A stretch of 64,000 nucleotides of DNA from Cliona cf. orientalis. Its lineage: Eukaryota; Porifera; Demospongiae; Clionaida; Clionaidae. The notes under the pieces are model-generated. The model was not told the DNA's origin and searched no databases. It saw only the letters and a list, made by a program, of their open reading frames with translations. Location: assembly GCA_963930775.1 (NCBI GenBank), contig OZ005702.1, positions 992,001 through 1,056,000 of the forward strand, given 5' to 3'. The position numbers and the translations under genes were made by a program. Shown here piece by piece: positions 8,698 to 42,878 of this stretch. Within the stretch, counting starts at the first letter, position 1; every line of letters begins with the position of its first letter.

Positions 8698-10253
8698 TTA
8701 ATTCTCAAACCGTTTCATCAAGTCTGCTATCTTTGTTGGTTTTGGGGCTGGTGGAGGTGGATTTGCCTTCTTCTCAAACTGCTCCTGGGCCACTGAGTCT
8801 GACACCTGTTCTGTCTTGGGAAGAGGAGGCGGTCGTTTCGACTTCTTACCACTGCGAACCCCTTTACCGACATGAGCAGCGGGCGATGTAAAATCACTGC
8901 TAACAACAACTGGCGCTGGGGGCTGCAGCTGCATCTTAAGCTTGCTAGGGGGATTCTTCTTGGCGTGATTCGCCATCAGGTTATACGATATATTCTCTTC
9001 TGTCGATATTTGCCATATAAGGTCATTATTGATGGTCTGTGTACCAGCATCACTACTCGGCAGCTTCTTAGGTTTTGTTCCCTTCTCTCCTCCTCCTCCC
9101 CCTCCTCCCGCTGCGTGGACATCTCGGTAGTACCTCACAATCAGGTAGGTTAGGCAGACCATTATAAGGATGATCATGGCCAGAAGAGCGCCTACAATCC
9201 CACCCAAGACGTTGATGATTGCGTCCTTTCTGCTCTCGTTTTTGCTGTCCTTTGCTCTGTTTAGGGTAGTTGATGGAGTGTTGACAGAGCATGTGCTATC
9301 TGTCATGGACGAAAAAGATGTACTGTAAACTAGATTATATAGTATGCTTATTTGGCATCTCCGTCTCTTCTCTCTCACTCTCTCTCCCTTTTTCTGTACT
9401 AAATATCTCTCGCCTATATGCATGGACAAAATGGCTACTATATACCTGGCGTGATGGTCAAATCAATGAGAGGTTGCTCTCTGAACGCCAGAGAGAGGCT
9501 TGGTCCCAGTAGCTCGACAGTGTCAGGAAGCTGCTGTCTGTAGACATAGTTTAGCTCTCCACCAGGCTCAAAGAGAACTTGGAAAGCCTGGTCAAATAGC
9601 GGTGGCAGCTCAATTCCTACCACGTCTCCAGGTTGGACAGAAATTCTGTCTCTTTCATCCAGCGTGTGTACGATAACTTCACAGTCAACTTGTGACGAAG
9701 GCACTGAGTTTTCCATTATGACACTCTGTCCGGTTCTAGAGTACTCCACACCAGACGTGTCATTGTTTCTTCTCCAGATCTGTAGCGTGGGGAATTGTGT
9801 TCCTGGTCCAGCCCTTCCCGCCGCCCTCCAGCCGGTTATCGTACCACAGCAGGTGAACTCTGCGTCTGGGATGAGCCTCGTCTCGATCGAGTTAGCCAAT
9901 CCCCTGGCTTCCCCGCCTCTGAAGCACGATACACTTACGGGTATTTTACACTCATTCTGCTGCCCCAGTACAACTGCATGTTAGGGGAAAATTTTTTTTT
10001 AAATGCAGCCTCACATAACTATAGTCGTGTAGTGGTCACTGTGTGAGACAGCCACCTCCTTGTTACAGCCACTTAGTTCAAGCTCCAAGTGGCAAAGCTC
10101 ATGGCTTTAAGGCAGCCACCTCTCTAATACAAAAACTAATTTTCTGCCCATAGGTGACCGTTACAGACATAGCTATGGTACATTATGCTTACCTTGAGCT
10201 CCACATATCTGTATAGTCAGAAGAACAACTACTATTAGTAGCTGTGTTTCCAT
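8698..10253 (-). CDS. single-pass receptor, six-Cys-family ectodomain, proline-rich tail (C)
   Basis: Model: complement of 8698-9299, 9446-9973 and 10193-10253; 1191 bases, 396 residues, both introns phase 1. Exon 1 encodes the signal peptide (METQLLIVVVLLTIQICGAQ). Exon 2 (about residues 21-196) is the shared ectodomain with SIETRL, GTITGW, LQIWRR and GDVVGIELPP. Exon 3 adds a short stalk, a membrane helix (about 224-251) and a 145-residue cytoplasmic tail with a poly-Gly stretch, YNLM (a YxxM motif) and two proline-rich segments (RPPPLPK, NPPPPAPKP) of the SH3-ligand type. Unlike its relatives it lacks the TCG/QCR cysteine pair. The proline-rich tail suggests cytoskeletal or SH3 signalling output; ligand and role are unknown. 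Confidence 0.8.
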
Positions 10254-10922
10254 TCCTCTGGTACCTGTGCTACTCAAGTATATCTTTTGGTTACACTTTT
10301 CAACATCAACATTTAATGTAGTATATATGTACTGTGACGAGGAGTGAATTGGTTATTCGCACGCCAAGACATCTAAGCCACACGAGAGGGAGGATCGTAG
10401 TATTGTTTTGACACGGGAGGATGCTGATATAGAGCTGTGTTTGTGGTCCTCTGTCCTAATACGGGAATGTGTCCCATGAGGTGCAGCCAAGCTGCATGGT
10501 GTTGAGCTATGCATGGTACCGTACATACAAGTGATGACTGAATATTATGTATAATAATATTATGTGTACTTTGTGTCTCCATTACCGGCTATAGCATGTG
10601 TAGGTGTAGAACACTGTAGGTTTAAGTAGCCTGTAGTATATAGTATTAAATTTGTACCATTCTCTGTCAGTGTGAATACTGGGCACTTGCCATAAGTCCG
10701 GCTGGCTTGCCACCTGAGCTGTAGGCATGGAGATATGACACCTTTGTCACACGTCATACTCTCTCTCATCTGGGAAACCAATTGAATCAACTATGCACAT
10801 AATTATATGCTGTATGATGGGAGATTATTTTAGGATTCCAATATTCATGGTTTTCATGATTAATCACCATCCCTAAAAAATGCTATGTAACACATGATAT
10901 TTGTATTATACTTTAATATCTA
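10254..10922. other. intergenic region with decayed duplicated segment
   Basis: There is no clear gene. The segment 10541-10800 recurs at about 16225-16480 and is part of the tandem duplication around the receptor genes. It contains a 76-codon open frame on the minus strand, but the two copies differ by indels that do not keep the frame, which argues against coding. Confidence 0.6.
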
Positions 10923-13175
10923 TTAGGCACGTAAGGTCCCATAGCACTCATTCTCATTCATATCCACTTGATGGTCACTGCCAGGAACTGAGTTGGGGAG
11001 TACCACACTGTACATTGGGTCTTCAACATCCTTCTTCATTTCTGCACTTGCACCTGCATCCTTGATCTTGTCTTCTTCACCGCTTAGTCGATTCATTGCC
11101 AATGATGTACTAAGTGTGCTTTGTTTTTTCTTAGTCAGTTTGACAATGGCAAGTACTATTATGAGAGTAACAAGAACTGTTATGAGGGCTCCCATGATAA
11201 TTCCGCCTACTGCAACTCCTGCTATTGTGCCCACTGTTGCTGTGCTAGTACCCTGACTTCCAGTTGGAGCTTTAATGGCACTGTTCGTAGTTGATCGTTG
11301 TATGTCTACGATGGTTGAAATTTTTTCAGTAGTATCCTCCTCCGTTGTTGGACTGGTTGACATGCTTTCAATTGTTGGAAAGTCATTTGTAGTAAGTTCA
11401 TTTGTTGTTGGTATTGTTGTCACAGACCCATCAGTTGCAGCATTAGGAGACACTGTGGTACATGTAGTTGATGCAGTCAAAATTAGGTTTATCACCCTTG
11501 TACTTCTCAAGGCTAGGCACCTAAGTGGTTCTGGGACTATAGGTAGGTTTTGCCTGAGTAGGCAACGTATGCAAGGGAAAAAGATCAGAGTGACTGGGGA
11601 CAAGGCTAGCGAAGGGGATTAATATTATGGCTAGCTTAGCATTTGATTGCTCACCTGGTTCAATTTCTAGACTTATCAGTAGTTGGTCACCCGACTGTCG
11701 AAGAGAATAGCTGGATGTATGTACCGAGGATTGCAGCTGTCGACGGTAAATGTAGTGGTCTTGTGTTTTTTCAGGAATGGATATGAAGTAAAGATGAAAG
11801 CCACTGACAGTCACTTGAGGTAGCTCCACTCCTAAAACATCTCCTGGCTGAACAGAGACTTGGTAATCTGCTCTCAGCCTACACTGGAAGATCTGGCCAC
11901 AAGTCTTTGTCACTATTTCACACCCCAATCCCTCGGGATTTACTGGAATATCTTGGCCTGGTTAACGCTCGGCGCATGCGCACGAGGGTTACAGTAGTCT
12001 GTTTGTCTGTCTGTCTGTTTGTCTGTCTGTTACCGCTCTACTGCCAGCGTAAAACATTTATGCAACAAAATGAACGTACCAGCCAATTTTTCGCCAAACT
12101 CCAAAGGTTTTCAACTGAGGGATTTTGCTAAAAAGCTTTCTCTCACGAGTTATAGCTTATTCTTTGTCTTTAGCATAGCGAGGTCAGCCATTTTTCAGTT
12201 CCCAGTATAGTAAACTATGGTTAAATCCCCTCCGTATACTACCTGTGGTAATGCCTATAACCATATATGGCTACAGGATATACTTCATAGGCTATATATA
12301 GAGCAAACTCAGGAATGCCAATCTGTAGTTGTCACGTGGCAGTGCATGTCTATTAAAAGCCCACCATTCATCCTGGTCATAGGCTTTTCCTGAAGTGAGC
12401 CTGAGGCTACATCATAGCTATATGGTCTCATCTTTAATAGAATAATTTGAGTAAGTTGCAAACATCTACTCACTATCCTGTCATAGCCTTGTAGTGCATG
12501 AGGCCAAGCTTGCATGCATATGGTCACAGTGTATCTTGATGACAGTATTATACCGTAGCTAGCTGTCTGCAGTCCAGCAACCTGGCCCGGCAGTATTACT
12601 ACTTTAATGAATAACAGCTCACACACATCAGCACAATTTAAATAGTAATCACTGCAAGAACACCCCAGAACGTCATTTGCACAAACATGACTATTATTCC
12701 ATCTTGATTTGTGACTCACATTGCACAATTGAATATCAGCATTATTAACCATCATAAGTACTGTTTTGATGTGCTGAATTTGCGCCGAGCGTTTTGCACT
12801 TTAGTGCTTTCATTTGTAGTAGTAGTCCGATCCTCGTGAGGGATCTGCTCGCCAAACTTGCAGTTCTGGATACTGATTCTTACTTTGTACTCTCTCACCA
12901 GTTACTGTCCAGCCCACTATAGTGCCATGGCAGGTGAAGTTCGCAGAAAAGAGAAGCCTTGTCTCAATTCCTTCATGTAGTCCTCTGTAGCTGCCCTCTG
13001 TGCATGATACGTATGTTGATGTCAAACACTGGGACTGACCTATACATATGTTATTCATGTATATAGGTATAACCATACAGAGGAAAAGCTGGTAACAATG
13101 TTTCAGAAATTTTAACTGACCTGAAGCTCCATTGATAGAAATAGCCACAATAGCCAACAAGATCTGGATGCTCAT
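10923..13175 (-). pseudogene. receptor of the six-Cys family, ectodomain exon broken by insertion (D)
   Basis: Recognisable parts: signal exon 13121-13175 (MSIQILLAIVAISINGASG), ectodomain 5' part about 12814-13039, ectodomain 3' part 11655-11963, and membrane/tail exon 10923-11452. The neighbour at 14319-15792 has the same gene uninterrupted. Here about 850 bases separate ...SDYYYK from PGQDIPVN, and a TGA follows the YYYK codons directly. I see no GT donor before that stop, so splicing is unlikely to rescue the frame. The tail exon is intact: Thr/Ser-rich stalk, helix (GGIIMGALITVLVTLIIVLA) and motifs YSVV and YGTL. The break is probably recent because both flanks remain clean. Confidence 0.75.
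11964..12812. mobile_element. insertion inside receptor D exon, 13-bp inverted termini
   Basis: Comparison with the intact exon in the neighbouring gene places the insertion between CCTGGTT and TTGTAGTAGTAG. The left terminus AACGCTCGGCGCA and TGCGCCGAGCGTT (ending 12793) are perfect inverted repeats. About 19 further bases (12794-12812) precede the resumed exon, so the right boundary or a second event is unresolved. The interior has a CTGT-rich stretch near 12000-12030 and a 148-codon minus-strand open frame (12309-12755) that I do not recognise. I assign no superfamily. Confidence 0.75.
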
Positions 13176-14318: not shown

Positions 14319-15792
14319 TTAGGCACGTAGGGTCCCATAGCACTCATTCTTATTCATATCCACTTGATGGTCACTGCTAGCAATTGGGTTGGGGAGTACC
14401 ACATTGTACACTGGCTCTTCAACATCCTTCTTCATTTCTGCACTTGCACCTGCATCCTTGATCTTGTCTTCTTCACCACTTAGTCGATTCATTGCCAACA
14501 ACGAAAGTGTGCTTAAAGTTTGTTTTTTCTTGGTCAGTTTGACAATGGCTAGTACTATTATGAGAGTAACAATAACTGTTATGAGGGCTCCCATGATAAT
14601 TCCACCTATTGCAACTCCAGCTATTATGCCTGCTGTTGCTGTGTTAGTACCGTGACTGACAATTGGAGCATTAACGGCATTGTCAGTGGTTGCATCTGAA
14701 ATGGTTGAAGTTTCTTTACTACTCTCCTCTGTTGTAGTGGTTGACATTCTTTTAGTTGTCGAAAAATTGTTTGTTGTAGGCATTGCTGTCACAGATCCAT
14801 CAGTAGTAGTATCAGGAGACACTAGTACAGTAGTTGATACCGTAAATCTGGAAATTTTCGTTGTAAAAATATTTTCGTAGTCGATGGCAGCTACGAAAAT
14901 TAATCTTACGAAAATTAGCATGCATATATTTAATTATTTAACGCTACTGCGGTAAGGGGTCGTTCCTACGAAAATATTTTTACATGAAAATTTATCATAC
15001 GAAAGTTACTTTACACGAAAATTTCCAGATCTACGGTACATGTATAATCATGCATATTCTACATGTCTTTATTTGCTGCAAAGAGGATTATAGCTTAGGA
15101 TTTGATTGCTTACCTGGTTCAATTTCCAGACTGATCAGTAGTTGATCATCCAACTGTTGAATAAAATGGCTGGATATATTTACTGAGGATTGCAGCTGCT
15201 CACGATAAATGTAGTGGTCTTGTGTTCCAGGAATGGATATGAAGTAAAGGTGAAAGCCACTGATAGTCGTTTGAGGTAGCTCTACTCCTAAAACATCTCC
15301 TGGCTGAACAGAGACTTGGTAATCTGCTCTCAGTCTACACTGGAAGATCTGTCCACATGTCTTTGTTACTATTTCACATGCCGATCCCTCTGGATTTACC
15401 GGAATATCTTGGCCTGGTTTGTAGTAGTAGTCCGATCCTTGTGAGGGATCTGCTCGCCACATTTGAAATTCTGGATACTGATTCCCACTTTGTACTGTCT
15501 CGCCAGTTACTGTCCAGCCCACTATAGTGCCATGGCAGGTGAAGTTCATAGAAAAGAGAAGCCTTGTCTCAATTGTAGTGGATCGTCCTCTGAAGCTGCC
15601 CTCTGTGCACGATACATTTGTTGATGTCAAGCACTGGGACTGACCTACTTAACATGACGATTTGTTGAAAAACTGATAGCTATATATATGTATAATATAT
15701 TGATAATATTTCAACTGACCTAAAGAGCCATCGATAGTAATAGCCACAATAGCCACCAAGATCTGGATACTCTTTGGAATCATCTTTTCCAT
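14319..15792 (-). CDS. single-pass receptor, six-Cys-family ectodomain, YxxV/YxxL tail (E)
   Basis: Model: complement of 14319-14821, 15114-15644 and 15720-15792; 1107 bases, 368 residues, introns phase 1. The start chosen is the first of two in-frame ATGs (15792), giving signal peptide SIQILVAIVAITIDGSLG. The ectodomain exon (about 25-201) has all six family cysteines (SQC, VSC, FTC, ACE, TCG, QCR) and GDVLGVELP. The last exon holds a Thr/Ser-rich, probably O-glycosylated stalk, a helix (GGIIMGALITVIVTLIIVLA) and a tail with VYNVVLPN and ECYGTL about 20 residues apart, possible SH2-binding tyrosines. Intron 2 contains a 197-base TA-flanked element. This is the best-preserved member of the D/E/F trio. 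Confidence 0.82.
14840..15036. mobile_element. MITE with CCGTA termini and TA target site (family 2)
   Basis: The left end CCGTAAATCTGGAAATTTTC and the right end GAAAATTTCCAGATCTACGG are inverted repeats with one mismatch. TA flanks both sides (14838-14839 and 15037-15038). The paralogous intron of the neighbouring gene is uninserted at 17150-17151 (GTTGATACATG). The interior repeats ACGAAAATT-type words. At 197 bases it has no coding capacity. It lengthens the intron from 93 bases in the paralogue to 292. Confidence 0.93.
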
Positions 15793-16699: not shown

Positions 16700-17893
16700 C
16701 TAGCAGCTGGGTTGGGGATTGAGTATCACACTGTTACCGTACACTGGCTCAACATCATTCATTTCTGCATCCTTTTTCCTGGTCAGTTTTGCAATGGCTA
16801 GTACTATTATGAGAGTAACGAGAACTGCTATGAGGACTCCAGTGATAATTCCACCGATTGCAACTCCAGCTATTGTGCCCACTGTTGCTGTGCTGCTAGT
16901 ACCCTGACAGCCAATTGGAGCTTTAATGGCATTGTCGGTGGTTGTATCTGAAATGGTTGAAGTTTCTTCACTACTCTCCTCTGTTGTAGTGGTTGATAGT
17001 CTTTCAGTCTTTGGAAAGTCATTTTTTGTCGGCATTGCTGTATACGTAGTGGTTGGTATTCTTTCAGTCTTCGGAAAATCGTTTGTTGTTGGTATTGCTG
17101 TCACAGATCCATCAGTAGTAGTATTAGGAGACACTAGTACAGTAGTTGATACATGTATAATTATGCTTATTCTACATGTCTTTATTTGCTGCAAAGAGGA
17201 TTATAGCTTAGGATTTGATTGCTTACCTGGTTCAATTTCCAGACTGATCAGTAGTTGATCATCCAACTGTTGAATAAAATGGCTGGATATATTTACTGAG
17301 GATTGCAGCTGCTCACGATAAATGTAGTGGTCTTGTGTTCCAGGAATGGATATGAAGTAAAGATGAAAGCCACTGATAGTCGTTTGAGGTAGCTCTACTC
17401 CTAAAACATCTCCTGGCTGGACGGAGACTTGGTAATCTGCTCTCAGTCTACACTGGAAGATCTGGCCACATGTCTTTGTTACTATTTCACACGCTGATCC
17501 CTCAGGATTAACCGGAATATTTTGGCCTGGTTTATAGTAGTCCGATCCTCGTGAGGGATCTGCTCGCCAAACTTGAAATTCTGGATACTGATTCCCACTT
17601 TGTACTCTCTCACCGGTTACAGTCCAGCTCACTATAGTGCCATGGCAGGTGAAGTTCATAGAAAAGAGAAGCCTTGTCTCAATTGTAGTGGATCGTCCTC
17701 TGAAGCTGCCCTCTGTGCACGATACATTTGTTGATGTCAAGCACTGGGACTGACCTATGTAACGTGACGATTTGTTGAAAAACTGATAGCTATATATATT
17801 ATATTGATATTTCAACTGACCTAAAGAGCCATCGATAGTAATAGCCACAATAGCCACCAAGATCTGGATACTCTTTGGAATCCTCTTTTCCAT
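16700..17893 (-). CDS. single-pass receptor, six-Cys family, truncated tail (F)
   Basis: Model: complement of 16700-17133, 17227-17754 and 17821-17893; 1035 bases, 344 residues, introns phase 1. The signal and ectodomain exons are almost identical to those at 15114-15792, with all six cysteines. The stalk carries an extra Thr-rich repeat. After the helix (GGIITGVLIAVLVTLIIVLA) the tail is shortened: about 30 residues found in E are missing, and a small frameshift turns the end into NPQPSC followed by TAG. The old reading frame, with the YGTL end, is still visible downstream to about 16645. It may be a receptor that has lost one tyrosine motif, or the start of decay. Confidence 0.72.
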
Positions 17894-18319: not shown

Positions 18320-22005
<3,686 letters not shown>

Positions 22006-25984: not shown

Positions 25985-28900
25985 TCAGTCTTCTTCTGCA
26001 TGCCCAGATGAGGAATCATAATGATCCAAAGAAATTTCAACAGTGAGATAGTCGGCCTTCTCCGCGAGAGTCTTGGAAATAGTCTCCACCAAAACGGAGA
26101 ATGAGCGTCGTTTGTTGGGATCCAGCTCCCAGCACAGCTGCATTATTGAATACCTAAAGTGTATGACATTGTGTAAAGGTAACCCATGGCCAGCTTCGAT
26201 CAAATTAATTTGTACATTTCATCACTGCAGGCTGTATTATTAGGTTTTTCTAGCCTCTTCCCTCCCTGCAGCTCGGTTTTCAGTGATGTTGGTCTGATGC
26301 CATCATAGGGAACTTGGCCTCCTGTGAAAATCTCCCAACATGTTACTCCAAAACTCCACTGGAGGTATATGGACCCGGGGGGGGGGGGGGGGGGAGGATG
26401 GGGATAAAATCGATTATGATAAGCTAAGCTATAATTGTGCTTCTTACAACGTCCGATTTTTCAGAAAAGATATAATCTGAAAAAGTCTCTGGAGCCATCC
26501 ACCTGAATGGCAACTTGATTCCCATGTCTCCTGATGCTAGGCGGTAGTACTCCTTGTCTTTCGTATTCACTGATAAACCGAAATCTGCAACTTTGATGAC
26601 CATATTCATATCCATCCTACATGGGTAGATCTAGCTATGCATGACGAATGTACTTGTGTCACCTGTTGGTTATTACGTACATGCAATTCCTTGCTGCCAG
26701 ATCTCTGTGAACCACTTTTTTACTGGCAAGATATTTCATACCTTTGGCCACCTGTAGGCACATGTCCAATAGCCGCTTTTCTATCTGCACAGATGAAGGA
26801 TGCATGCATGTGATTGTCACATGATTCCATAATAATCACTGCCATGTCAATAATATGCACATGCATAGTAATAACTATTGACTTACTTCTTGTGACTGTG
26901 CAATTTCTGTATCTGGTGGCACCACAAGGCTCGATTTTTTCTTCTTCAGATATGTCAGCAAACTACCATTTGCCATATATGGCAGTATGATGTAGGGTAC
27001 TGGTCCACCATCGAGGCACACTCCCTTCAGATTCATTACATTTGGATGGTTGAAGCTTTTCATCTTTGCACTCTCCCGAAGTAGCTCTTGAATCTTATTC
27101 TTATCAATGAAACCTATGAATTTATATTATACTATACATTTTGTTCAACTTAATTGCCCCCAAGCATGTCGAGAGGGTGTGGCCTACAACCACCGCATTA
27201 AAGCATTTGGATTCACCTGGTATGCCTTACTAAGTATGCTACAGGGAAGATCACTGTACATAGAGTAGGTATACCTTTCAGTGTCTTGATGGCAACAATC
27301 TCTGTAGCAACCTGATCAACTTCAAGATAGCCTTTGTATACTATACCAAATTCACCTAGTCGTGTGCATAAGTTATGTTATACATACGGTGTACATGTGT
27401 ATAGTGTAAAGTCATCCACTTTTCAGGTTTACCTTGTCCAATTGGATCTGATATTTGGAGGTTTTTGGAGCTGATTTTTAGAGATGATGTGATTTTTGCC
27501 TTGAGTGATCCCTTTATCACCACCCCATGTTGTATCGTTTCATTGGAGGAATCAGAACAATTTAATGTCCCATCTGTGCCACTAAGAGTCCTAAGCAAAT
27601 CCATGCACATGATTCAATCTAATAAATAACCTGGTAACCTGATATTATTATACCGTTGATTTGTTACTTTTTTATGCCGGTGGTAGTACGTCTGCCTCTG
27701 AGGTGGATTAGTATGATTTGCTGCTTCTCTATCGATACAGTTAACAAATACTACAACCACAATTAGCAAACCAATGAGCAAACCAACTACTGGCACTACC
27801 ACGATAAGGATGACAGTTATACTACTGGAAACTGCAGACCCAGAAACTGCAGGAAATACATACTGCATCACAATAATTATCGAAACTGACAAATAAGTAG
27901 TAGACTATGTGCATCAGTCCTGTATGATCTCTGCATGTGTATTGAAATTAATGGGCATGAGAATATTATAATAATATTATGGCCAAATGGCTTTGTGTAG
28001 AACCGTGATTACATATTATAGATGGCACATCACTGGATCCGGATCTGCAAGTAGTTCCATCAGAGTCGAGCTGGTAGCTAGAGTTGCATCCACATAAAAA
28101 TCCTCCATTGGCATTGATACAGCGCTGCTGGCAGTTGTGCATGCCAGCTGTGCATTCATCAACATCTAGGCAAGATTTCTCGTCAGAAGAAAGTGTATAG
28201 CCGTTGATGCAACTGCACTGAAGTGACCCAGTGGAGTTGATGCAGATTTGAGCACAGTCATTTATACTAGTGTGACACTCATTAGGATCTAGTGAGAGCA
28301 TGCATGCAGTGTAGATTTCAATGCATGCAGAACTGGATCAGATCTAATACAGCTAAACTGGCCACGTGCATGCATGGCATGCATACCAATCATGAATATT
28401 AGCAGCTATCTATAATTACACTCACCCCATTCAACTTCCACATCGAGAAATAAAATGTCTCCTACTATAATATCTTGGGTACCACTCATTAAGCTGGAGG
28501 AAGTCACTTCACGTCTCCAAACATGTTGTATTTGTTCACTATTATCTACAAAAAGCAGCTCAAATAATTGATCATTAAGTGGAGGCAGCTCCACTCCAAT
28601 GATATCCAATCCAGCAAAAATAGAAACGTGGTTAGCTGCAGATAGCCTGCAGTGAAGTTCTTGACCGCAATTTACATTTCTGGTTATTGTTTCACATGAT
28701 GATCCGTGAGCATCTATTTGAATTTCTGGCCCATTCTTGAAGTATAAATTTGCATCAGTGCTGCTTCTCCTCCATACCTGCAGCTTTGGGTACATTGTTC
28801 CAGTTCCATTCCTTCCAGACACTATCAATCCCACGAGAGTCCCTGTGCAGTTGAATTTCATTGCTGAAATTAACCTCGTCTCCCTACTGTTTTGTATAGT

Positions 28901-29093
28901 CAGTCCTCTCTTAGTACCTTGTGTACATGACAGTTCACTGAATGTCAAGCATGAATCTATAAAATATTAATTATTATTATTATTGTGCCACCATAAAATC
29001 TGTAAAGAGATAGAACATGCACAAACCTTCAATTCCATTCGTCGTAAATATGACTGCCATGATAACAAAAAGCCGCTTGAAAATCACTGCCAT
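25985..29093 (-). CDS. receptor tyrosine kinase with six-Cys ectodomain and two EGF domains (I)
   Basis: Eleven exons: complement of 25985-26153, 26216-26358, 26448-26616, 26681-26784, 26887-27113, 27275-27355, 27433-27590, 27639-27846, 28034-28288 (alternative end 28013), 28426-28956 and 29027-29093; about 703 residues. Signal peptide, six-Cys ectodomain (23-199), two EGF domains (about 200-284), helix ([20 protein letters not shown]), then a kinase. All key kinase residues are present: GQGEFG loop (405-410), VAIK lysine 430, a Glu in [14 protein letters not shown] (Asp 537), DFG 555-557, paired activation-loop tyrosines (EYYRL) and WMAPE. It should phosphorylate tyrosines on itself or partners. 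Kinase-less relatives sit on both sides. Demosponges are known for large RTK expansions with unusual ectodomains, which fits. Confidence 0.9.
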
Positions 29094-29935: not shown

Positions 29936-31362
29936 TTACTGTACTATAGCTGTGTATTCGGTATCCTCGTCTTCACTGGCATGGAAGGGTGCTTCTAGCA
30001 CTGACATCCTTTGAGTCTCATCAAAAATTACGGTGACCCTGCTCTCCCCATAAGCTTCATTATTTTGCATTGTGATTTCTGATTTATTGCTACTTCTTTT
30101 GATCACACATGCCAGGATCACCAAAAGTAGGATGATCAGAAGTAGCAGTGGAGTGCCAACAGCTCCGCCCACTGTAGCTCCTATTATCAAACAAGAGGCT
30201 TTTCCTATTGTAGGATCATAAAAAGCAATAATAAAGTTTCTACTTGGTTAAATTAAATTTTGCTAGTGGATATTACGCTTGTACCTCATGATCATGCAGT
30301 ATAGCTATAATATTATACTAATCAACTACCAGCTCACCAGAATAGTTTCTTCCATCAGAGTTGAGTTGTGATGAAATATTATCAGACTCTGGTAATAGAT
30401 TACAACATAATTACAGTCACATTACTTTCAGAGTAGTGTACATGTAAAGCATAGCATGCTGTATTGCTAAGTATTAATAGGTATTAATATATGCACACCC
30501 TGTTCAATTTCCAGACTAATCAATAGCTGATCATGTAAGAGACGAAAGGAATGCCCATTCACGGCTGTAATTTCTACTGAAGAACCCAGCTTCCTTCGAA
30601 AAATGAAGTGATCTTGCATGTTTGGAACTGAAATAAAGAAAAGTTCAAATCCGCTGCTATTAAATGGAGGTAGCTCCACTCCTAGAATGTCACCACGTTG
30701 AACAGCAACTCGATTATTAGCTTTCAGCCTGCACTGGAAGATCTGGCCACATGTCTGCGTGATTAATTCACATGCCGACCCCTCAGCATCTACTTGAATA
30801 TCTCGACCTTGCTTGTCATAGTACCTGCTATGTGAGCTATTCTCTCTCCAGACCTGTAGCTTAGGATACTGTGTTCCTTCTCCCCTTCGTCCAGCCACTG
30901 TCCACCCCACTATAGTGCCAGGGCAGGTAATTTTTGCTGAGAAAAGAAGTCTGGTCTCAATTGTGTCAATCCGTCCTTTAGTAATGCCTTCTGTGCATGA
31001 CAGGCTTGTCGACGACAAACATTGGAGCTGGCCTACACAAAATAAGTGATAGCTGTTGTTATAGTAATAATGTATAAGTATTAGGTTCTGATAGCTAGCT
31101 CTTGCACTGATCATAATGTAGCTACGTACATAGAGACCAAATAATAGAATAGGTGTGTGCATATGCATCACCAATAGTAAGGCCGTGTGCATGCATCCCT
31201 TCAGAATCTGTACCATGCAAAATAATTATTAATGCTGACTCCCAGTCAGAGCTATCGTGATTAACTGCATTAATTACCTTCAGCTCCAGCAGCACAAGTA
31301 TCCTGTACACTCCATATTATGCAGATGAAAATGATCAGCCACTTGCCGGAACTGGGAGGCAT
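29936..31362 (-). CDS. single-pass receptor, six-Cys family, one mini-exon stalk (J)
   Basis: Model: complement of 29936-30204, 30338-30388, 30499-31032 and 31278-31362; 939 bases, 312 residues, all introns phase 1. Signal exon (PSSGKWLIIFICIIWSVQDT); ectodomain exon with six cysteines, GTIVGWTVAG and GDILGVELPP. One 51-base mini-exon encodes DNISSQLNSDGRNYSG, where the usual cysteine is tyrosine. The last exon has a helix (PLLLLIILLLVILACVIKR) and a tail with YGES and EYTAI. It is the first of three recent tandem copies (J, K, L), and its tail differs from the other two after the YGES motif. Function unknown. Confidence 0.85.
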
Positions 31363-32163: not shown

Positions 32164-34809
32164 TCACTGTACATTAGTGTATATATCGTCTTCCTCACAA
32201 GGTAACTTCATAATATTATTAGCACTGACATCCTTTAGTTGTGTTTCATGAGAGCTCTCTCCATAAACTTCATTTCTTTGTGTCATAATTTTTGATTTAT
32301 CACCATTCCTTTTGATCACACATGTCAGTATCACCAAAAGTAAGATGATTAGAAGTAGCAGTGGAGTGCCAACAGCTCCGCCCACTGTAGCTCCTATTAT
32401 CAAACAAGCTGCTCCTATATAGTCTCTACATGCAGGATCATATAAATCAATTTTCCATGGGTTAAATAAATTTCATATTTGATATAGTAGTATGCAATGA
32501 CAGTGTCATGATCCTCATACAATATCATAATCATGTATGTAATAATAATATTATATTATGCAGTATACAAAATAATAGCTACGTATACTTGACATACTAT
32601 GATTACTATTATAATGCTCACCGGAACAGTTTCTTCCGTCAGAGTTGAATTGCAATGAAATGTTATCTGGTAATGCATGGTATATTGGTTTCAAGCAATA
32701 TTTAACTGTTAAGCACATTTTCCATCATGAAGCTGGGTTTAATTTTATGTTTGATGTATACAATGCCCTGCATGTAGCTCATGCATATAATAATAATAAT
32801 TATTACTATTATTATACTTGACAAAAAATTTAATATGGATTTCATGTATGTAGGAAAATTAAAATGTGTAGGACAAAATTTTCTACACATTTCATTATTA
32901 TTACAAAAATTCTGCCCTATCCTCTGCCAAACATTTGTATAGGAAAGCTCATGTTTGGGTAATCACATGTGACATAAGGAAATCTTAGTTTAATTTTGGT
33001 CCAGTGTTAGTGCCAGTATTATGGCTATACACTTATTATATTATAATGCTACAGTTTCTTCCATCAGAGTTGAATTGTGATGAAATATTATCTGAAACTT
33101 TTGATTACAACAATACGTATTACGGTTGTATTACCGGTAATTTCAATTGAGCCATGTATAATATAATATATAGGCTTAGCCAGTTTGTAAAATCTCACTG
33201 ACAAACAACATGACATGCAAAGCTATAATATTAAACTAGCTTGATCATGATACACCAACTGGACATTATTGAAATTTTGTAGTGCACAATAGAGTAGCTA
33301 ATATTATTATGCTTACCGGAACTGGAACATGTGCAGTTTTTTTCATCAGTGTTGAGCTGAGATGAAGTATTGTAATTGTCTGGCAATATTATTATATAAT
33401 ATAATATTATTATTACCGCATTACAAATTTAATATAATTATGCTCACTGGAACAATTTGTTTCTGAGTTGAACTGTGATGAAGTGTTGTCTGGCAATGGT
33501 ACAAATTGAATACGTTATAATGTACAACAAGCTGAATTTAGCTGATAATTATGATTTGCACAGTAGACTATAATATACTCTGCTTACTGCTACATGTAAA
33601 ATACACAGCTCTTTCTATTTAAATTTTGTAAACTCTGTAGATTCTCTCTAGCCTATATAGCTCGTCCCCAGAAACGCATGCATTGAATAAAGATCGGGGA
33701 GACTGGGGATTAGGTTAGATTCTCTTCATTAGTATAATATTAGCTACAGCTATAGTACGTACTTGCAGTATAATAATATTATACTAGTGCATGTATTAGG
33801 TACCTTGTTCAATTTCCAGACTAATCAATAGCTGATCACCTAAATGACGAAAGGAGCGCTCAGATATGTGTACTGATTCGCCCAGCTGCTTTCGAAAAAT
33901 AGAGTGTTCTTGTGTGTTTGGAACTGAAATGAAGAAAAGTTTAAATCCACTGCTATTAGTAAGTGGAGGTAGCTCCACTCCTAGAATATCGTCATGTTGA
34001 ACAGCAACTCGATTAGCTGCCCTCAGCCTGCACTGGAAGATCTGGCCACATGTCTGCGTGATTAATTCACATGCTGATCCCTGAGCATCTACTTGAATAT
34101 CTTGACTTTGCTTGTTGTAGTAACCTCTTCGTGAGCTGTCACCTCTCCAGATCTGTAGCTGAGGGTACTGCATTCCTTCTCCCCTTCGTCCAGCCACTGT
34201 CCACCCCACTATAGTGCCAGGGCAGGTAAAATTTGCCGAGAAAAGAAGTCTGGTCTCAATTGTGTCAATCCGTCCTTTAGTCATGCCTTCTGTGCATGAT
34301 AAGTTTGTTGATGACAAACATTGGAGCTGGCCTGCATGTAATATATATATTCTGCACGCTATGAAGACTGCATAATAATATTATTATTAACTGAATTCGA
34401 GTTAGCAATAATAGTGTGCCTTACAAAATATTAATGCTCACTCCTAGTCAGTACATAGATCTTAACTAACCTTCGGCTCCAATATGCATGTAGCTTCCCA
34501 GTAATCAGCTAGCTATTTTACTATAGCCTATTAATTTAGCAGCTAGGGGCATAGCTATCCCATGATTCATTGGTATGGATTGATAAGAGGTATATAGCTG
34601 ATTTTGTAAGCAGCCAAAATTATTTTAGCACAAGGTCAAAAAGAAAATTATTTTATCTTGTGAAGGTTGGTATGGCAAGAGCCACACTTTACCATACCCT
34701 GGCTACACCACTATTAAATTTTAGTACCTTCAGCTCCAGTAACACTAGTACCCTGTACGTTCCATACGCTGCAGATGAAAAGGATCAGCCACTTCTGACA
34801 CTGAGACAT
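32164..34809 (-). CDS. single-pass receptor, six-Cys family, multi-mini-exon stalk (K)
   Basis: Model: complement of 32164-32414, 32622-32666, 33317-33379, 33448-33489, 33804-34331 and 34728-34809; 1011 bases, 336 residues, all phase 1. Signal exon (SQCQKWLILFICSVWNVQ), six-Cys ectodomain (GTIVGWTVAG, GDILGVELPP-type DDILGVELPP), three usable mini-exons forming an N-glycosylation-rich stalk, then helix and a short tail with VYGES and IYTNV (a YxN, Grb2-type SH2 motif). A fourth mini-exon-like block (33050-33091) has lost its splice donor and is probably skipped. It is nearly identical to gene L outside the inserted elements. Confidence 0.83.
32622..33489 (-). other. mini-exon array of receptor K
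   Basis: Three phase-1 symmetric exons of 45, 63 and 42 bases lie at 32622-32666, 33317-33379 and 33448-33489. Each encodes a variant of N-[I/T]-S-x-Q-[F/L]-N-[S/T] followed by a single cysteine, for example NISLQFNSDGRNCSG. Each is flanked by CAG or similar acceptors and GTGAGC or GTAAGC donors. A related block at 33050-33091 keeps the acceptor and sequence but ends in AACTGTAGCA instead of TGTTCCGGTGAGC. Confidence 0.85.
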
Positions 34810-35677: not shown

Positions 35678-37089
35678 ATGGAAACGGCTGAGTATCTGTG
35701 TGGAGAGTGTGCAAACGAGGTAAAAGATGAGGATAAGGCTGTTTATTGTGAAGGTGCGTGTCAGGCTTGGTTCCATGCCCAGTGCGTGAATGTGAACGAT
35801 GAACTGTATGCCCATTTATCCGACTCAGAAGAAAAATGGGAATGGGCCAGTACAGTTAATAAGAATACACCCCTGTTGAGGAACACTTTTCCGATTCCCC
35901 TAAAGACAAGTAATCGGATAAATTTCCCCCAGAAGACTTAATTAAAATGGAGGCAGTGACCCCCAAGATATCGTTAAAATGCGCCATTTTACCCCCAGAA
36001 CATCATTAAAATAGCCTCAACACCCCCCAAGACTTCATCAAATCAAGCTCCCCCCTCAGGATACAATTATCGTTCCTCAACAGGGGTGTATCCTTATTAA
36101 CTGGAATAGCCCAATGCCCTTTGTGTCAAAAAAGTGATTTACCACCTTTCAACAGCGTGGACGCCGTCGACTGTTTTCATTTCGATTTTCAGCAGAACCT
36201 GCCAACTCCAAAGCTGACCGTTGGTCAGCAGTTTTACTGTAGGCTGCTCTGGACCTACCTTTTTGGGATTTATTCTGCATCAACACAGCTAACTGCTGCG
36301 TACATGTGGCATGAACTGCTGGCGAAGAGAGGAGCAAATGACGTGATATCCTGTATAACACATTTTGTATACTGCAATCCGTTGGGCCGAACCGGTGCAA
36401 AGTGGAGCATATGGTGGGCTGATAACTGCCCAGGGCAGAATAAAAATAACTACATAATTTGGTTTTTTCAAGATCTCATCCGCCGCAAAGTGTATACAAG
36501 GATTGACTACAAATTTTTGGTTGTTGGGCATACATATTATGGTCCATCAGACCGGAGTTTTGGAGTTATAGAGCAGCATACATCCAAAGTTGAAACTGTT
36601 TATACTCCTCAGCAGTGGTATGAGCATGTTAAACAAGCATCTATCGCTGTTAGAGTAACGGAAATGGAGCAGACATCTTTCCGAAACCACCGACAGCACC
36701 TACGAAAGCTGTACACAGAGAGAAGTCAGGATACAGACAAGCAACCCCTAGACTTCAGTCGTATAGTTTGGTTCAACTTTGGGAAAGGGGAGAAAGTTCA
36801 AGAAGGAAAAGTGATTATGGTTGACCACCCCAAGGAGGTGTGGGTGAGACACACATACAGTGTCGCAGAAGCTCCGAAACGTGTTTCCTATTTGAAGAAA
36901 CGGGGTGTTCAATCTGGAATAGACAGGAAGCCTCCACCATTGTACCAACAGTACCCTATTCCCCTGAAGAAACCCAAAGCAGATGACTTACGTAAGCTAG
37001 TTTCAAATTTTGTGCCTAGCAAATATCAAGACTTTTATGCTGAACTGCCAACCGATGGTAGTGACAGCTCTGATACCGACGAAGATTAG
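35678..37089 (+). pseudogene. transposon protein: PHD finger plus DDE-like C-terminal domain, split by insertion
   Basis: The first part (35678-35843) encodes a PHD-type zinc finger (YLCGECANEV, AVYCEGACQAWFHAQC, EKWE). It is interrupted by a 269-base element and resumes at 36116 with CPLCQK, which supplies the last zinc-ligand pair. Without the insert and one AAT copy the frame is 1140 bases (379 residues). The second part has the acidic motifs HFDFQQNLPTP, WWADNCPGQNKN and YYGPSDRSFG, the pattern of a DDE-type transposase core. I recognise this pattern from animal transposon-like proteins but cannot name the superfamily. The N-terminal half usually joined to it appears on the opposite strand (37218-38354). 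Confidence 0.75.
35844..36112. mobile_element. 269-bp MITE nested in the transposon's PHD exon, AAT target duplication
   Basis: The ends GGGCCAGTACAGTTAATAAG and CTTATTAACTGGAATAGCCC are imperfect inverted repeats that extend through ACACCCCTGTTGAGGAAC and its complement. AAT occurs on both sides (35841-35843 and 36113-36115). Removing the element and one AAT gives the codons for E-K-W-E-C-P-L-C, the expected end of the PHD finger. The interior has short repeats of the CCCCCAAGAYWTCRTTAAAAT type. Confidence 0.9.
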
Positions 37090-37217
37090 CATGCAGTATC
37101 TTATGCTCTCATTGTCCCATTCTCCCCGTAATTACGTATGTATTGATACTCTTATTTCTATTTCATAATGTATCAATAACACTATGTATAATAACATTAA
37201 CAGCAATTTTATTTAAA

Positions 37218-38711: not shown

Positions 38712-38949
38712 TAAAGCATTAAATTTTAATTATTATTGTATGCAACATATCCAGTAAACAGTATTTATTAGGGAGACACTGCCACTGTTTGATAGATCAG
38801 GAATGAAAAATTGAGGGGCAAAAACTTAATACTTTCAAAGATCAAAATTAATGTCCTGGAAATTCATATTAGCTATATTATAACAATAATATTCAATCTG
38901 ACCGTTACTAGCAAGAAAGCACTCGACTATATATTATTATAATATTGAT
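38712..38949. other. right flank of transposon, duplicated intergenic segment
   Basis: It starts with the right copy of TAA and continues as AAGCATTAAATTTTAATTATT, nearly identical to 31932-32163. No gene. Confidence 0.8.
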
Positions 38950-41900
38950 TCACTGTACATTAGTGTATATATCATCTTCCTCACAAGGTAACTTCATAAT
39001 ATTATCAGCACTGGCATCCTTTAGTTGTGTTTCATGAAAGCTCTCTCCATAAACTTCATTTCTTTGTGTCATAATTTTTGATTTATTACCATTCCTTTTG
39101 ATCACATACCGGTATGTCAGTATCACCAAAAGTAAGATGATTAGAAGTAGCAGTGGAGTGCCAACAGCTCCGCCCACTGTAGCTCCTATTATCAAACAAG
39201 CTGCTCCTATGGTCTCTACATGCAGGATCATATAAAACAATTTTCCATGGGTTAAATAAATTTCATGTTTGATATAGATCTAGTATGCAATGACAGTGTC
39301 ATGATCCTCATACAATATCATATATCATGTATGTAATATAATATTATATGCAGTATACAAACAATAGCTATGTATACTTGACATTATAATGCTCACCGGA
39401 ACAATTTCTTCCGTCAGAGTTGAATTGCAATGAAATGTTATCTGGTAATGGTATAATATACAATGTTAATATTGGTTTCAAGTAATATTTGAGCACATTT
39501 TCCGTCATGAAGCTGGGTTTAATTTTGTATGCAATGCCCTGCATGTACCTCATGCATAATAGTAATGCATAATATTATACTAGGACAAAAATCTGGATTT
39601 CATGCATGTAGGAAATGTATAGGACAAAATTTTCTACACATTTCATTATTACTTACAAAAATTCTGCCCTATCCTCTGCCAAACATTTGTAGGAAAGCTC
39701 ATGTTTGGGTAATCACAACATAATCTTAATTAGTTTTGGTCCAGTGTTAGTGCCAATATTATTATATAACGAAAAATATTTTTCCGAGAGCGATAATTTT
39801 CTTATAAAACCGCTTCCTGTCTCTCGTGTATTTGGGACTCGCTCAGGCTCGCCCCGAATTAGCGTAAACATTGACTGACTAGACTACGGAGTGCTGACTC
39901 TAAAGAAAAGGAATTCCAAAAAGTTACACTGAAAGACTACAGGCACAAGAGTTCCTGAAGCTTACAAAATCTTGTAGCTACACTTATTATAATATTTTAT
40001 CATAATGCTCACCGAAACAGTTTCTTCCATCAGAGTTGAATTGTGTTGGAATATTATCTGGAATTACAACAATAATATTATTATGGTTGCATTAATTTCA
40101 ATTGAGCCATGTATAATAGGCTTAGCCTATAGATAGTATATGTCGGCCAGTTTGTAAAATCTCACTGACAAACAACACGATAAACTTGCTGTATTGAATC
40201 ATAGGCAGAGGAAGATGTCGGGAGTAGGGGGGGGGGGCACAAGTTATCATGTGCAGAATTATAAATTTAATCCATAAAGCTTCCCTCATTGATTCTTTTA
40301 TAATAATGTGACCTGGTCCAGGGTTTTGCCTGACTTAGCTACTCAGAATCAAACAACAATGGCGGTGATAGCATGTGTTTGCATAGCTTCAGTGGCTCGG
40401 GGGGGGGGGCACTATCTCTACTTCAGGCTGGTTTGGGGGGGGGGGGGGAGGGGGTGGGCATGCGCCCCTGGTGCCCCCCTGCTTCCGCCACCTATATATG
40501 TAAACTAGCTTGATCATGATACACCAACTGAAATTTTGTAGTGCACAATAGAGTATTAATATTATTATGCTTACCAGATCCGGAACATGTGCAGTTTCTT
40601 TCATCAGTGTTGAACTGAGATGAAGTATTGTAATTGTCTGCAATGGCAATATTATAATAATAGTATTATTACCGCATTACAAATTTATTATATTATTATA
40701 ATTATGCTCACTGGAACAGTTTGTTTCTGAGTTGAACTGTGATGAAGTGTTGTCTGGCAATGGTATACAATACGTTATAATGTACAACAAGCTGAATTTA
40801 GCTGATAATTATGATTTACACAGTAGATTATGCGCATGCTCTGCTTGCTGCTAAAACACACAGCTCTCTCTATTTAAATTTTGTAAACTCTGTCTGAGAT
40901 TCTCTCTAGCCTCGTCCTCAGTCTCCCCGATCTTTGTTCAACGCACGTGAGAAACGTGTGCGTTGAACAAAGATCAGGGAGACTGAGGACGAGGCTAGAT
41001 CTCTCCATTAGTAAAATATTAGCTACAGCTAGTACATACTTGCATGCTATGGTATAATCATTACATCCCCAGTATAAATTTACTTTTTTGCGGTTATAAG
41101 GTAATTATGTTGTAATTATGATGTGTCGTCATAGCGCTAAAATTCAGAGCCTTTACAGAACACTTCTGAGATCTGAAAATCGATAGAATCACACATTAAC
41201 TTACATACATACCCAGCGAATACATTAAAAGCTGAGTGCTACTTTCTCCGACAAGTAATGCTGGCCGAACTTCACGCGTTCTCTTGGCTGACGTAATCCT
41301 GTGGATAAATAAAGCTAGCCTTGCGCTATTTATAGCACGCGTCATGCCACGACCGATCTGAAGTTCGGAAGCTGTACCGTGCTGTCGAGTTCATCTCCTT
41401 TGATTGAAGCATCGAAACTCGAAGTCGAGAGTCGGTCTTAGACTCCATCTCTGCGATTGAGGCCCCGGCATCGATGTGTATATTGACGACCTTTTACCAC
41501 ATGCACCATTAGAACTATGTAGCTACTGGGGATGTGGTCAAGTTTTTCATAATAATACCAATGCATGTATTAGCAGGAGCATATAAGCCGCCCAAAGGGC
41601 GGAAAAGGAGCGTCCGACTACTGTAGGGTTGGCTGTAGCATGACATTGTGTTAGGTGAAGTACCATTAAGACTACACTTCCTTATTTGGAACGTGGAGCT
41701 GGTGCAGTGCACAGCAGATCACTTTTGTACAAGCCACACTGTACTAGCTAATTGACTTAGTCTGTAGTGTGGTTGTAGACTGTGCACTACAGGCGGTGCT
41801 ATCGCTATGGAGATCGATCAGAGCTTAACCAATGGAAATACCCTGCAGCTGGCCACTCCATGTAAGGTAAAGCATTGCTAATGAACTTCGCCTAACACAT

Positions 41901-42878
41901 CTGACACGCAGTCGGACGCTCCTTCGCCGCCCTTCGGGCGACTCATATGCTCCTGGTATTAGGTACCTTGTTCAATTTCCAGACTAATCAATAGCTGATC
42001 ACCTAAATGACGAAAGGAGCGCTCAGATATGTGTACTGATTCGCCCAGCTGCTTTCGAAAAATAGAGTGTTCTTGTGTGTCTGGAACTGAAATGAAGAAA
42101 AGTTTAAATCCACTGCTATTAGTAAGTGGAGGTAGCTCCACTCCTAGAATATCGTCATGTTGAACAGCAACTCGATTAGCTTCCCTCAGCCTGCACTGGA
42201 AGATCTGGCCACATGTCTGCGTGATCAATTCACATGCCGACCCCTCAGCATCTACTTGAATATCTTGACCTTGCTTGTCGTAGTACCTGCTATGTGAGCT
42301 ATTCTCTCTCCAGACCTGTAGTTTAGGATATTGCGTTCCCTCTCCTCTTTGTCCAGCCACTGTCCAGCCCATTATAGTACCAGGACATGTAAAATTTGCC
42401 GAGAAAAGAAATCTTGTCTCAATTGAGTCAGATAATCCTCTAACAAGGCCTTCTGTGCATGACAGGCTTGTCGACGACAAACATTGGAGCTGGCCTACAC
42501 AAAAATCAATAAGTAATAGGTGTTGTTATATAGTAATAATGTATATAATTATAAGTAATTAGGTTCTGATAGCCTTGTACACAGTGCAATACGGTCTTTT
42601 GCACTGAATACAAAGCTATGTAGCTACATACATCAGAGGCCAAATTGAATAGCTAATTAATGTATAGCAGGTATGTGCATGTGCATCACCAATAATATAA
42701 TAATACTATAGCATGGCCATGTGTATGCATCCCTTCTGTGCCATACAAAATAATTAATGCTAACTCCCAGTCAGAGCTATCGTGATTAACTGCATTAATT
42801 ACCTTCAGCTCCAGCAATACGAGTATCCTGTACACTCCATATTATGCAGATGAAAATGATCAACCACTTCTGAGGCAT
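38950..42878 (-). CDS. single-pass receptor, six-Cys family, four-mini-exon stalk (L)
   Basis: Model: complement of 38950-39206, 39397-39441, 40013-40057, 40575-40637, 40712-40753, 41967-42494 and 42803-42878; 1056 bases, 351 residues, all introns phase 1. Signal exon (PQKWLIIFICIIWSVQDTR), six-Cys ectodomain (GTIMGWTVAG, ILGVELPP), four intact mini-exons, then helix and tail ending YTNVQ. Relative to K it has a short in-frame insertion (YR) just after the helix. Two inserted elements and a hairpin in the introns enlarge the gene. It sits next to DCP2, whose 3' end lies 400 bases upstream of its start. Function unknown. Confidence 0.83.
39397..40753 (-). other. mini-exon array of receptor L
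   Basis: Four symmetric phase-1 exons of 45, 45, 63 and 42 bases lie at 39397-39441, 40013-40057, 40575-40637 and 40712-40753. They encode NISLQFNSDGRNCSG, NIPTQFNSDGRNCFG, NYNTSSQFNTDERNCTC... and NTSSQFNSETNCS. Acceptors end in CAG; donors are GTGAGC or GTAAGC. The second exon corresponds to the decayed block in gene K. Confidence 0.87.
40906..40998. repeat. 93-bp hairpin repeat in receptor L intron
   Basis: Arms of 41 bases (CTAGCCTCGTCCTCAGTCTC... and ...GAGACTGAGGACGAGGCTAG) flank an 11-base loop, with one mismatch in the parts I checked. Gene K has a decayed version near 33645-33720, so the hairpin predates the duplication. Confidence 0.85.
41065..41533 (-). repeat. dispersed repeat family R, copy 3, in receptor L intron
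   Basis: It is bounded by CATCCCCAGTA and TACTGGGGATG. It is the reverse of the copies at 4540-5320 and 20464-20915 (AATCGCAGAGATGGAGTCTA, CATGTATCCAGCGAATAC-type blocks). It is absent from the corresponding intron of gene K, so it was inserted after the duplication or lost in K. Confidence 0.75.
41574..41955. mobile_element. 382-bp MITE, 46-bp inverted ends, 7-bp target duplication
   Basis: The left end CAGGAGCATATAAGCCGCCC and the right end GGGCGACTCATATGCTCCTG are inverted repeats of about 46 bases with several mismatches, each ending in GGAGCGTCCGACT or its complement. GTATTAG is duplicated at 41567-41573 and 41956-41962. Gene K shows the uninserted site GCATGTATTAGGTACC (33790-33804). 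CAG termini and a 7-8 base duplication suggest a hAT-type element. It lies just outside the donor of the ectodomain exon. Confidence 0.9.

What the first reader, a model, noticed from the sequence alone, without database searches (positions are those of the whole stretch)
8698..42878. Cluster of nine receptors sharing one ectodomain exon but with swapped stalks and cytoplasmic ends
Seen: nine minus-strand genes (C, D, E, F, H, I, J, K, L) each have a signal exon, one phase 1-1 ectodomain exon with the same pattern (SC..EG, ETRL, TC.GT..GW, C..., QCRL, GD.LGVELPP), then different modules: Thr/Ser stalk, eight EGFs, two EGFs plus kinase, or mini-exons. Tails carry a kinase, proline-rich SH3-type motifs, YxxV/YxxL pairs or YTNV. 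Known: sets of receptors with a common ectodomain and contrasting signalling tails are typical of immune and self-recognition clusters. Inference: this is a candidate sponge recognition locus with an ectodomain family I cannot assign to any named domain.
Basis: partly seen in the sequence, partly recalled or inferred. Interest (0 to 1): 0.9.

Follow-up and report, generated by a model that had tools for sequence, protein, structure and literature searches.

The report
Sponge-type receptors sharing one ectodomain
A cluster of cell-surface receptor genes shares one unnamed, sugar-binding-like outer domain but carries different inner signalling ends, and it is a small branch of a family of roughly a hundred such domains in this animal's genome, many of them next to tyrosine-kinase exons.

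Summary
The cluster is real. Nine minus-strand genes (window 8698-42878) carry one homologous ectodomain exon; eight are intact, D's is split by an 851-bp insert. Signal exons, phase 1-1 ectodomain exons and swapped stalks and tails check out at sequence level. Five genes (E, F, J, K, L) give stop-free receptor models.

None of 40 members matches a Pfam family above cut-off. AlphaFold2 predicts a confident all-beta domain (pLDDT 89), only remotely like carbohydrate-binding and phage tail domains; by sequence it is not an Eph ligand-binding domain.

The same genome (216.8 Mb) gives 91-115 ectodomain matches per query, on seven contigs in the first search. The 27 closest copies of one Eph/EGFR/FAK-like kinase exon all lie within about 5 kb of an ectodomain. 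Two C7 arrays mix receptor kinases with kinase-less receptors, some with multi-tyrosine tails. Window gene I has a different, Mer/Met-like kinase.

In one array (C7b) kinases stay alike while ectodomains are saturated; in another (C7a, few exons) the reverse holds. Window paralogues show purifying selection (dN/dS 0.13-0.49), no support for hypervariable self-recognition.

Best reading: a large receptor family for ligand recognition signalling by phosphotyrosine. Ligand, species and polymorphism are untested.

The parts
8698..10253 (-). Gene C: signal exon 10193-10253, ectodomain exon 9446-9973, TM plus proline-rich tail exon about 8698-9299
   Evidence: tail acceptor is one of several candidates
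10923..13175 (-). Gene D: signal exon 13121-13175, ectodomain split into 12813-13034 and 11653-11961, Thr/Ser stalk + TM + tail (YSVV, YGTL) about 10923-11452; probably disrupted
11962..12812 (.). 851-bp insert inside the ectodomain exon of gene D; AACGCTCGGCGCA occurs near both ends in inverted orientation; DNA-transposon-like
14319..15792 (-). Gene E: complete model, 368 aa (signal 15720-15792, ectodomain 15114-15644, stalk+TM+tail 14319-14821; tail YNVV and YGTL)
16700..17893 (-). Gene F: complete model, 344 aa (17821-17893, 17227-17754, 16700-17133); tail shortened relative to E
22716..25636 (-). Gene H: signal exon 25564-25636, ectodomain 24940-25506, EGF exons between about 24859 and 23176, TM + tail exon from about 23101
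25985..29093 (-). Gene I: signal 29027-29093, ectodomain 28426-28956, two-EGF exon 28040-28288, TM in ORF 27617-27904, tyrosine-kinase pieces about 25988-27400 ([30 protein letters not shown])
   Evidence: splicing to the kinase not modelled
29936..31362 (-). Gene J: complete model, 312 aa (31278-31362, 30499-31032, mini-exon 30338-30388, TM+tail 29936-30204; tail ends YTAIVQ)
32164..34809 (-). Gene K: model 286 aa (34728-34809, 33804-34331, 32164-32414; tail ends YTNVQ; mini-exon remnant near 33053-33095 left out)
38950..42878 (-). Gene L: model 316 aa (42803-42878, 41967-42494, mini-exons 40013-40057 and 39397-39441, TM+tail 38950-39206; tail ends YTNVQ)

Best explanation
The nine genes are one branch of a large receptor family built on a single unnamed ectodomain, an all-beta, jelly-roll-like domain of about 175 residues that resembles carbohydrate-binding modules. 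Most family members lie elsewhere in the genome, as receptor tyrosine kinases with one to three ectodomains or as kinase-less receptors. The ectodomain sits on a symmetric phase 1-1 exon and can be joined to new stalks and tails by exon shuffling, as in gene I with its different kinase. Mechanism (inferred): ectodomains bind glycans or glycoproteins on microbes or other cells. Ligand clusters receptors, kinase-bearing members phosphorylate themselves and the tyrosine tails of kinase-less members, and SH2 proteins dock there; C recruits SH3 proteins through its proline-rich tail. Shown: homology, exon phases, architectures, nearness to kinase exons, predicted fold. Inferred: splicing outside the five complete models, ligand class, clustering, trans-phosphorylation, recognition role.
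For: Ectodomain family: 91, 98 and 115 genome matches with three queries, overlapping and not merged. Linkage: 27 of the 27 closest K1 kinase exons lie 1.5-5.0 kb from an ectodomain match, while 0.22% of the genome lies within 10 kb of one (the cut at 27 was set after seeing the gap in identity from 83% to 75% or less). Module order ECTO-TM-kinase in at least 11 units on C7, interleaved with at least 8 ECTO-TM units whose next downstream ectodomain or kinase feature is another ectodomain, 5 of these with multi-tyrosine tails (read from the listing). Gene I kinase: none of its 121 other matches lies in the listed ectodomain arrays, and of its 20 nearest paralogues 0 lie within 200 kb of an ectodomain. 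Fold: pLDDT 89.4, pTM 0.86; structural neighbours include carbohydrate-esterase N-domains, CBMs and a lectin-like domain. In array C7b, kinase exons have median pS 0.183 / pN 0.027 and ectodomains pS 0.719 / pN 0.474. Subtypes recur on other contigs.
Confidence: 0.47

Rival explanations
1. An ordinary lineage-specific radiation of receptor tyrosine kinases and their kinase-less relatives used in development, adhesion or growth control, with no special recognition role.
For: Gene I and the C7, C3, C11 and C5 arrays have kinase exons next to ectodomains; window dN/dS 0.13-0.49; related kinase exons are numerous genome-wide, 150 scored of 287 candidates; the same genome has 17 Eph ligand-binding matches.
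Against: Ectodomains within array C7b are saturated while its kinases are nearly identical (the reverse in C7a); copies turn over (broken D, shortened F); 8 of the 9 window genes show no kinase motif.
Confidence: 0.31
2. An allorecognition locus: polymorphic receptors of this cluster distinguish self from non-self tissue through homophilic or allelic binding.
For: Cluster of related receptors with different tails; recent ectodomain pairs on C7 with dN/dS 0.91-1.14 (3 of the 19 close pairs listed).
Against: The six within-subfamily window pairs give 0.13-0.49; the family is spread over seven contigs; no population data. Matches at 96-99% over 136-163 aa for C, J and L say little, because the database is clustered at 90% and the individuals are unknown.
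Confidence: 0.12
3. A birth-and-death tandem array, much of it decaying, with no common function beyond what each fused tail provides.
For: D broken by an insert, F tail shortened, K/L duplicate blocks, transposon-like ORF between K and L.
Against: Eight of nine ectodomain exons are open with splice sites, five complete models have no internal stop, and selection is purifying.
Confidence: 0.08

Closest known systems
Eph receptors (Ephrin_lbd PF01404), including the sponge Ephs of Krishnan et al. 2019 (PMC6485061; outline, abstract and passages read)
   Different: No PF01404 match in 40 members; the genome's 17 PF01404 matches lie on C4, C8, C2, C1, C6 and C17, the nearest 198 kb from an ectodomain; hhalign probability 0.3% against four of them; EGF, Thr/Ser stalk or tandem ectodomains seen; fn3 and SAM not looked for.
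Vertebrate paired receptors (e.g. Fc-receptor-like or NK receptors; recalled, search listing seen)
   Same: One ectodomain type with contrasting tails encoded in a cluster.
   Different: No Ig or C-type lectin match to the ectodomain; no canonical ITAM/ITIM seen by eye; sister members carry kinase exons.
SRCR receptor expansions of sponges (PMC10855680 and PMC4772301, seen as search listings only)
   Same: Large receptor families in sponges linked to recognition.
   Different: Different domain; this one has no Pfam entry and is tied to tyrosine-kinase exons.
Carbohydrate-binding modules, carbohydrate-esterase N-domains, Cwp84 lectin-like domain, phage minor tail domains
   Different: Identity at most about 15% in those tables, no clear family match; a shared fold shows no function.

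Membership tests
Eph receptor | Ephrin ligand-binding domain PF01404 by sequence | tested here: not met
   0 of 40 members match at E <= 1; own-genome PF01404 matches lie elsewhere; hhalign 0.3%
Eph receptor | Eph LBD fold | tested here: inconclusive
Eph receptor | Eph-like tyrosine kinase | tested here: inconclusive
   K1 exon (C7 arrays): best PDB hits EGFR, EphB1, EphB4, EphA7, FAK; gene I: Mer, Met; no kinase tree built
Eph receptor | fn3 repeats and SAM domain | not tested
   only ten window ORFs were scanned with Pfam for architecture and ten; no array gene was scanned
Receptor tyrosine kinase (gene I) | Signal peptide, ectodomain, TM, tyrosine kinase with glycine loop, catalytic lysine, HRD and DFG | tested here: met
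   signal, ectodomain, EGF; TM; [15 protein letters not shown]; [13 protein letters not shown]; PF07714 in four pieces, one of them below the cut-off; joined splicing inferred
Paired receptors | Clustered genes with one ectodomain type and contrasting cytoplasmic tails | tested here: met
Paired receptors | Activating and inhibitory outputs on a shared ligand | not testable with these tools
   no ligand or signalling data
Paired receptors | ITAM/ITIM, or charged TM for an adaptor | tested here: inconclusive
   tails read by eye: YTNV, YTAI, YNVV, YGTL; no strict ITAM/ITIM seen; no formal scan
Allorecognition locus | Extreme allelic polymorphism | not testable with these tools
   only 90%-clustered protein matches of unknown individuals
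Allorecognition locus | Diversifying selection on the ectodomain | tested here: inconclusive
   window pairs dN/dS 0.13-0.49 do not show it; C7 pairs reach 1.14; pairwise averages only, no site models
Carbohydrate-binding module | Sequence or clear structural match to a CBM family | tested here: inconclusive

The most novel reading that the evidence does not exclude
Early animals evolved a tyrosine-kinase-based counterpart of paired immune receptors: one jelly-roll, lectin-like ectodomain family of about a hundred members, mounted on two kinase lineages and on kinase-less multi-tyrosine tails, so that kinase members trans-phosphorylate kinase-less members that see the same class of ligand, giving a combinatorial recognition system for microbes or neighbours without Ig, Toll or NLR domains.
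Probability: 0.25. Interest if true: 0.9.

Novelty: new variant of a known kind. Interest (0 to 1): 0.7.

Why it matters
Sponges tell self from non-self and live with dense microbial communities, yet the receptors are poorly known. A family of roughly a hundred ectodomains with no library entry, lying next to tyrosine-kinase exons and kinase-less partners, is a concrete candidate set if the host is a sponge. It is directly testable with ectodomain binding screens and comparison of individuals. It also offers a clear natural example of one ectodomain exon joined to different signalling outputs.

Tried and rejected
Rejected: Eph ligand-binding domain by sequence. Rejected: any Pfam or NCBIfam family; weak matches only. 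PHROGs gave one weak tail-protein match in 1 of 40 members (E 0.0014) and one at 0.071, not enough to name it. PDB sequence searches gave nothing below E 0.1. Remote homologues were sought with a wider alignment (149 proteins at E <= 0.01, 120 listed); none of those 120 shows a Pfam domain, so no bacterial source was recognised. Close relatives in viral and prokaryote genome collections, sought with peptide patterns of gene J only: none. Structural families absent from the VIA list are not excluded. A model of the four Eph LBD exons was made (pLDDT 76) and not searched further.

Positive selection in the window: looked for by pairwise Nei-Gojobori only, not found; site models were not run. Two of the six pairs involve the broken gene D. 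Species and phylum: not identified. Literature: the ectodomain was not found described in searches; the Amphimedon genome paper is not held, so a description there cannot be excluded. PMC6485061 was read as outline, abstract and passages; PMC6993872, PMC8662651, PMC8242945, PMC5450542, PMC10176882 and PMC7385117 as passages only; other papers as listings.

Limits of counts: genome matches are exon pieces, not genes (D counts twice), and only the best candidates are scored; 91 matches of 100 scored; 98 of 133; 115 of 150 scored of 157; 150 of 150 scored of 287; 122 of 150 scored of 175. One search used positions typed by hand (27 + 31 of the 150, 20 of the 122), and only the ectodomains, not the weaker ones. 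Of the next 31 kinase matches after the 27, 4 lie within 10 kb of an ectodomain and 2 of these within 5 kb. The tree used 66 of the 107 hits, chosen by hand as the window's subfamilies with short ones dropped, plus 8 window ectodomains (not D); contigs there are told apart only by their length.
Full report
What is in the window. Nine minus-strand genes between 8698 and 42878 carry one homologous ectodomain exon of about 175 codons. The exon of gene J alone finds the other seven intact copies and both halves of D; a profile from the eight intact copies does the same. Pairwise identity of the intact copies runs from 35% (C against E or I) to 97% (E against F). Three groups are clear: J/K/L (79-87% identical), D/E/F, and the single genes C, H and I (D is not in the tree). 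Signal exons ending in phase 1 precede all nine. All eight intact ectodomain exons have AG and GT borders in phase 1-1. Complete, stop-free models were obtained for J (312 aa), L (316), K (286), F (344) and E (368).

Exceptions. The ectodomain exon of D is cut by an 851-bp insert (11962-12812) with an in-frame stop at the junction. AACGCTCGGCGCA occurs near both ends of the insert in inverted orientation, and 57 bp of its end recur at 88% in L040. F's tail is in a shifted frame relative to E and stops before the YGTL motif. Of the eight intact copies, 6 have ETRL, 6 TC.GT..GW, 6 QCRL and 1 the exact GD.LGVELPP.

Modules. J, K and L have a short linker, one TM and tails ending YTAIVQ, YTNVQ and YTNVQ. 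L has two mini-exons, J one; K's remnant lacks the same donor. D, E and F have Thr/Ser stalks and tails with YSVV, YNVV and YGNS. C has a proline-rich tail. H and I have EGF domains (PF07645 and others). Gene I ends in a tyrosine kinase: PF07714 in four pieces, with GEFGIVYKG and VAIK, [11 protein letters not shown] and WSFG.

It is not an Eph ligand-binding domain by sequence. The genome holds 17 PF01404 matches on C4, C8, C2, C1, C6 and C17, the nearest 198 kb from an ectodomain. A profile comparison with four of them gives 0.3% probability. A shared fold class remains possible; Krishnan et al. describe the Eph LBD as galactose-binding-like (PMC6485061, abstract and passages).

The family outside the window. 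The window is C14:992001-1056000 of a 216.8-Mb, 149-contig genome. Single-sequence searches gave 91 (J), 98 (L026 copy) and 115 (C) matches at E <= 1e-3. These overlap, were not merged, and count exon pieces. The 91 lie on C7 (31), C5 (30), C14 (11, with both halves of D and one copy outside the window), C11 (11), C3 (5), C10 (2) and C8 (1). Weak matches to C appear near other kinase exons (C7:509-600k, C15, C10), which suggests a wider superfamily.

Linkage to kinases. A kinase exon from the C7 array (GSGQFG type, 'K1') scored 150 matches. The 27 best (E <= 1.9e-33, at least 83% identity) all lie between 1.5 and 5.0 kb from an ectodomain match; only 0.22% of the genome is within 10 kb of one. 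The cut at 27 follows a gap in identity (83% to 74-75%) that I saw before choosing it. Of the next 31, 4 lie within 10 kb, so related kinases mostly belong to other genes. Feature order in the fetched C7 stretches shows at least 11 units ECTO(1-3)-TM-kinase and at least 8 units ECTO-TM followed by another ectodomain, 5 of them with multi-tyrosine tails of the NEAYSP / EDNVAYG kind (my reading of the listing; weak TM-like patterns were passed over; no transcripts). Some K1 exons (C7:443.7k, 464.3k) have no ectodomain found just upstream. K1 is closest to EGFR, EphB and FAK kinases in the PDB.

Gene I is different. Its kinase exon is closest to Mer and Met. Of its 122 genome matches the best is itself, and none of the others lies in the C7, C5, C11, C3 or C14 ectodomain arrays. 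Its 20 nearest paralogues (65-73% identity) lie on contigs without an ectodomain or more than 200 kb from one. So the ectodomain seems to have been joined to at least two kinase lineages; no kinase tree was built.

Evolution. Over the fetched arrays, 17 kinase exons have median pS 0.253 and pN 0.054 (136 pairs), and 28 ectodomains pS 0.701 and pN 0.474 (378 pairs). In array C7b the contrast is sharp: kinases pS 0.183, pN 0.027 (45 pairs), ectodomains pS 0.719, pN 0.474 (136 pairs). In C7a it is reversed: 4 kinases pS 0.628, pN 0.251, 3 ectodomains pS 0.088, pN 0.084. C11a (2 kinases, 3 ectodomains) goes with C7b: pN 0.000 against 0.089. The two parts evolve apart in some arrays, by constraint, gene conversion of the kinases, or both. 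Among the 19 closely related ectodomain pairs listed, dN/dS ranges from 0.13 to 1.14; three are 0.91-1.14, all on C7. The six within-subfamily pairs of the window give 0.13-0.49, with no 40-column window of pooled pairs where pN exceeds pS. This speaks against strong diversifying selection at this cluster, though pairwise averages miss selection on few sites.

Elsewhere. The 5.8-billion-protein collection gave 107 hits with A1 and 149 at E <= 0.01 with a wider alignment, 120 of them listed. Of all those listed, one carries a precomputed Pfam domain (P0005, PF15102; its place in the protein is not shown). In a tree of 66 of the 107 plus 8 window copies, the subtypes C, H, I, J/K/L and E/F each group with sequences of other contigs. 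Hits sharing one contig length (514276, and 95239) fall in both the J/K/L and the E/F-type clades, which suggests the two-subtype cluster exists in other genomes. The closest matches reach 98.6% for J (138 aa), 96.9% for C (163), 95.6% for L (136) and 93% for E and F, but only 53% for H and 62% for I. Nothing was found in viral or prokaryote genome collections with patterns of J.

How it likely works. The outer domain probably binds a glycan or glycoprotein. Kinase members would autophosphorylate on clustering, and kinase-less members would be phosphorylated in trans or by cytosolic kinases and dock SH2 proteins. Only the parts and their order are shown; ligand, clustering and phosphorylation are inferred. 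I prefer ligand recognition (microbe, food or neighbour) over self-recognition because the window shows purifying selection and the family is spread over many loci.

Literature. Eight full-text searches did not turn up a description of this ectodomain or of this arrangement in what their listings show. Papers seen in passages report 13 sponge Ephs (PMC6485061) and almost 200 'cytokine receptors' with kinase, Ig or fn3 domains in Halichondria panicea (PMC8242945). The Amphimedon genome paper was not available.

Verdict. A real and interesting receptor family with an unnamed ectodomain; the window is a minor, mostly kinase-less branch. New variant of a known kind (clustered receptors with a shared ectodomain and swapped signalling ends).

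Noticed in passing
window 18320-21843 (+): An SMC-type gene (SMC_N E 5.4e-8 at 21349-21843, below the cut-off; looks like SMC5 by eye) lies on the opposite strand inside the receptor cluster, between F and H.
   Followed up: partly
window 1882-2376 and 5512-6060 (-): Two single-TM proteins with Ig-like sequence by eye (weak Ig_2 match, below cut-off, for the first; none for the second) lie just beyond the cluster.
   Followed up: partly
window 36010-37086 (+): Transposon-like ORF with DUF7869 (E 1.1e-15) between K and L, next to a 392-aa minus-strand ORF without Pfam match.
   Followed up: no
window 31932-34336 vs 38712-42499 (-): K and L share duplicated blocks, 91% identical over the ectodomain and 88% over the tail region.
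   Followed up: partly
G000 C15:6.69-7.06 Mb, C5:8.02-8.32 Mb, C11:1.33-1.39 Mb: Further arrays of related tyrosine-kinase exons with no strong ectodomain match: probably receptors with other ectodomains.
   Followed up: no
G000 C8:5.47-5.52 Mb: Eph ligand-binding exons lie near kinase exons 66-72% identical to that of gene I.
   Followed up: no
L040:290-344: Copy of the end of the insert that splits gene D lies about 4 kb from the distant family member on C14 at 2.75 Mb.
   Followed up: no
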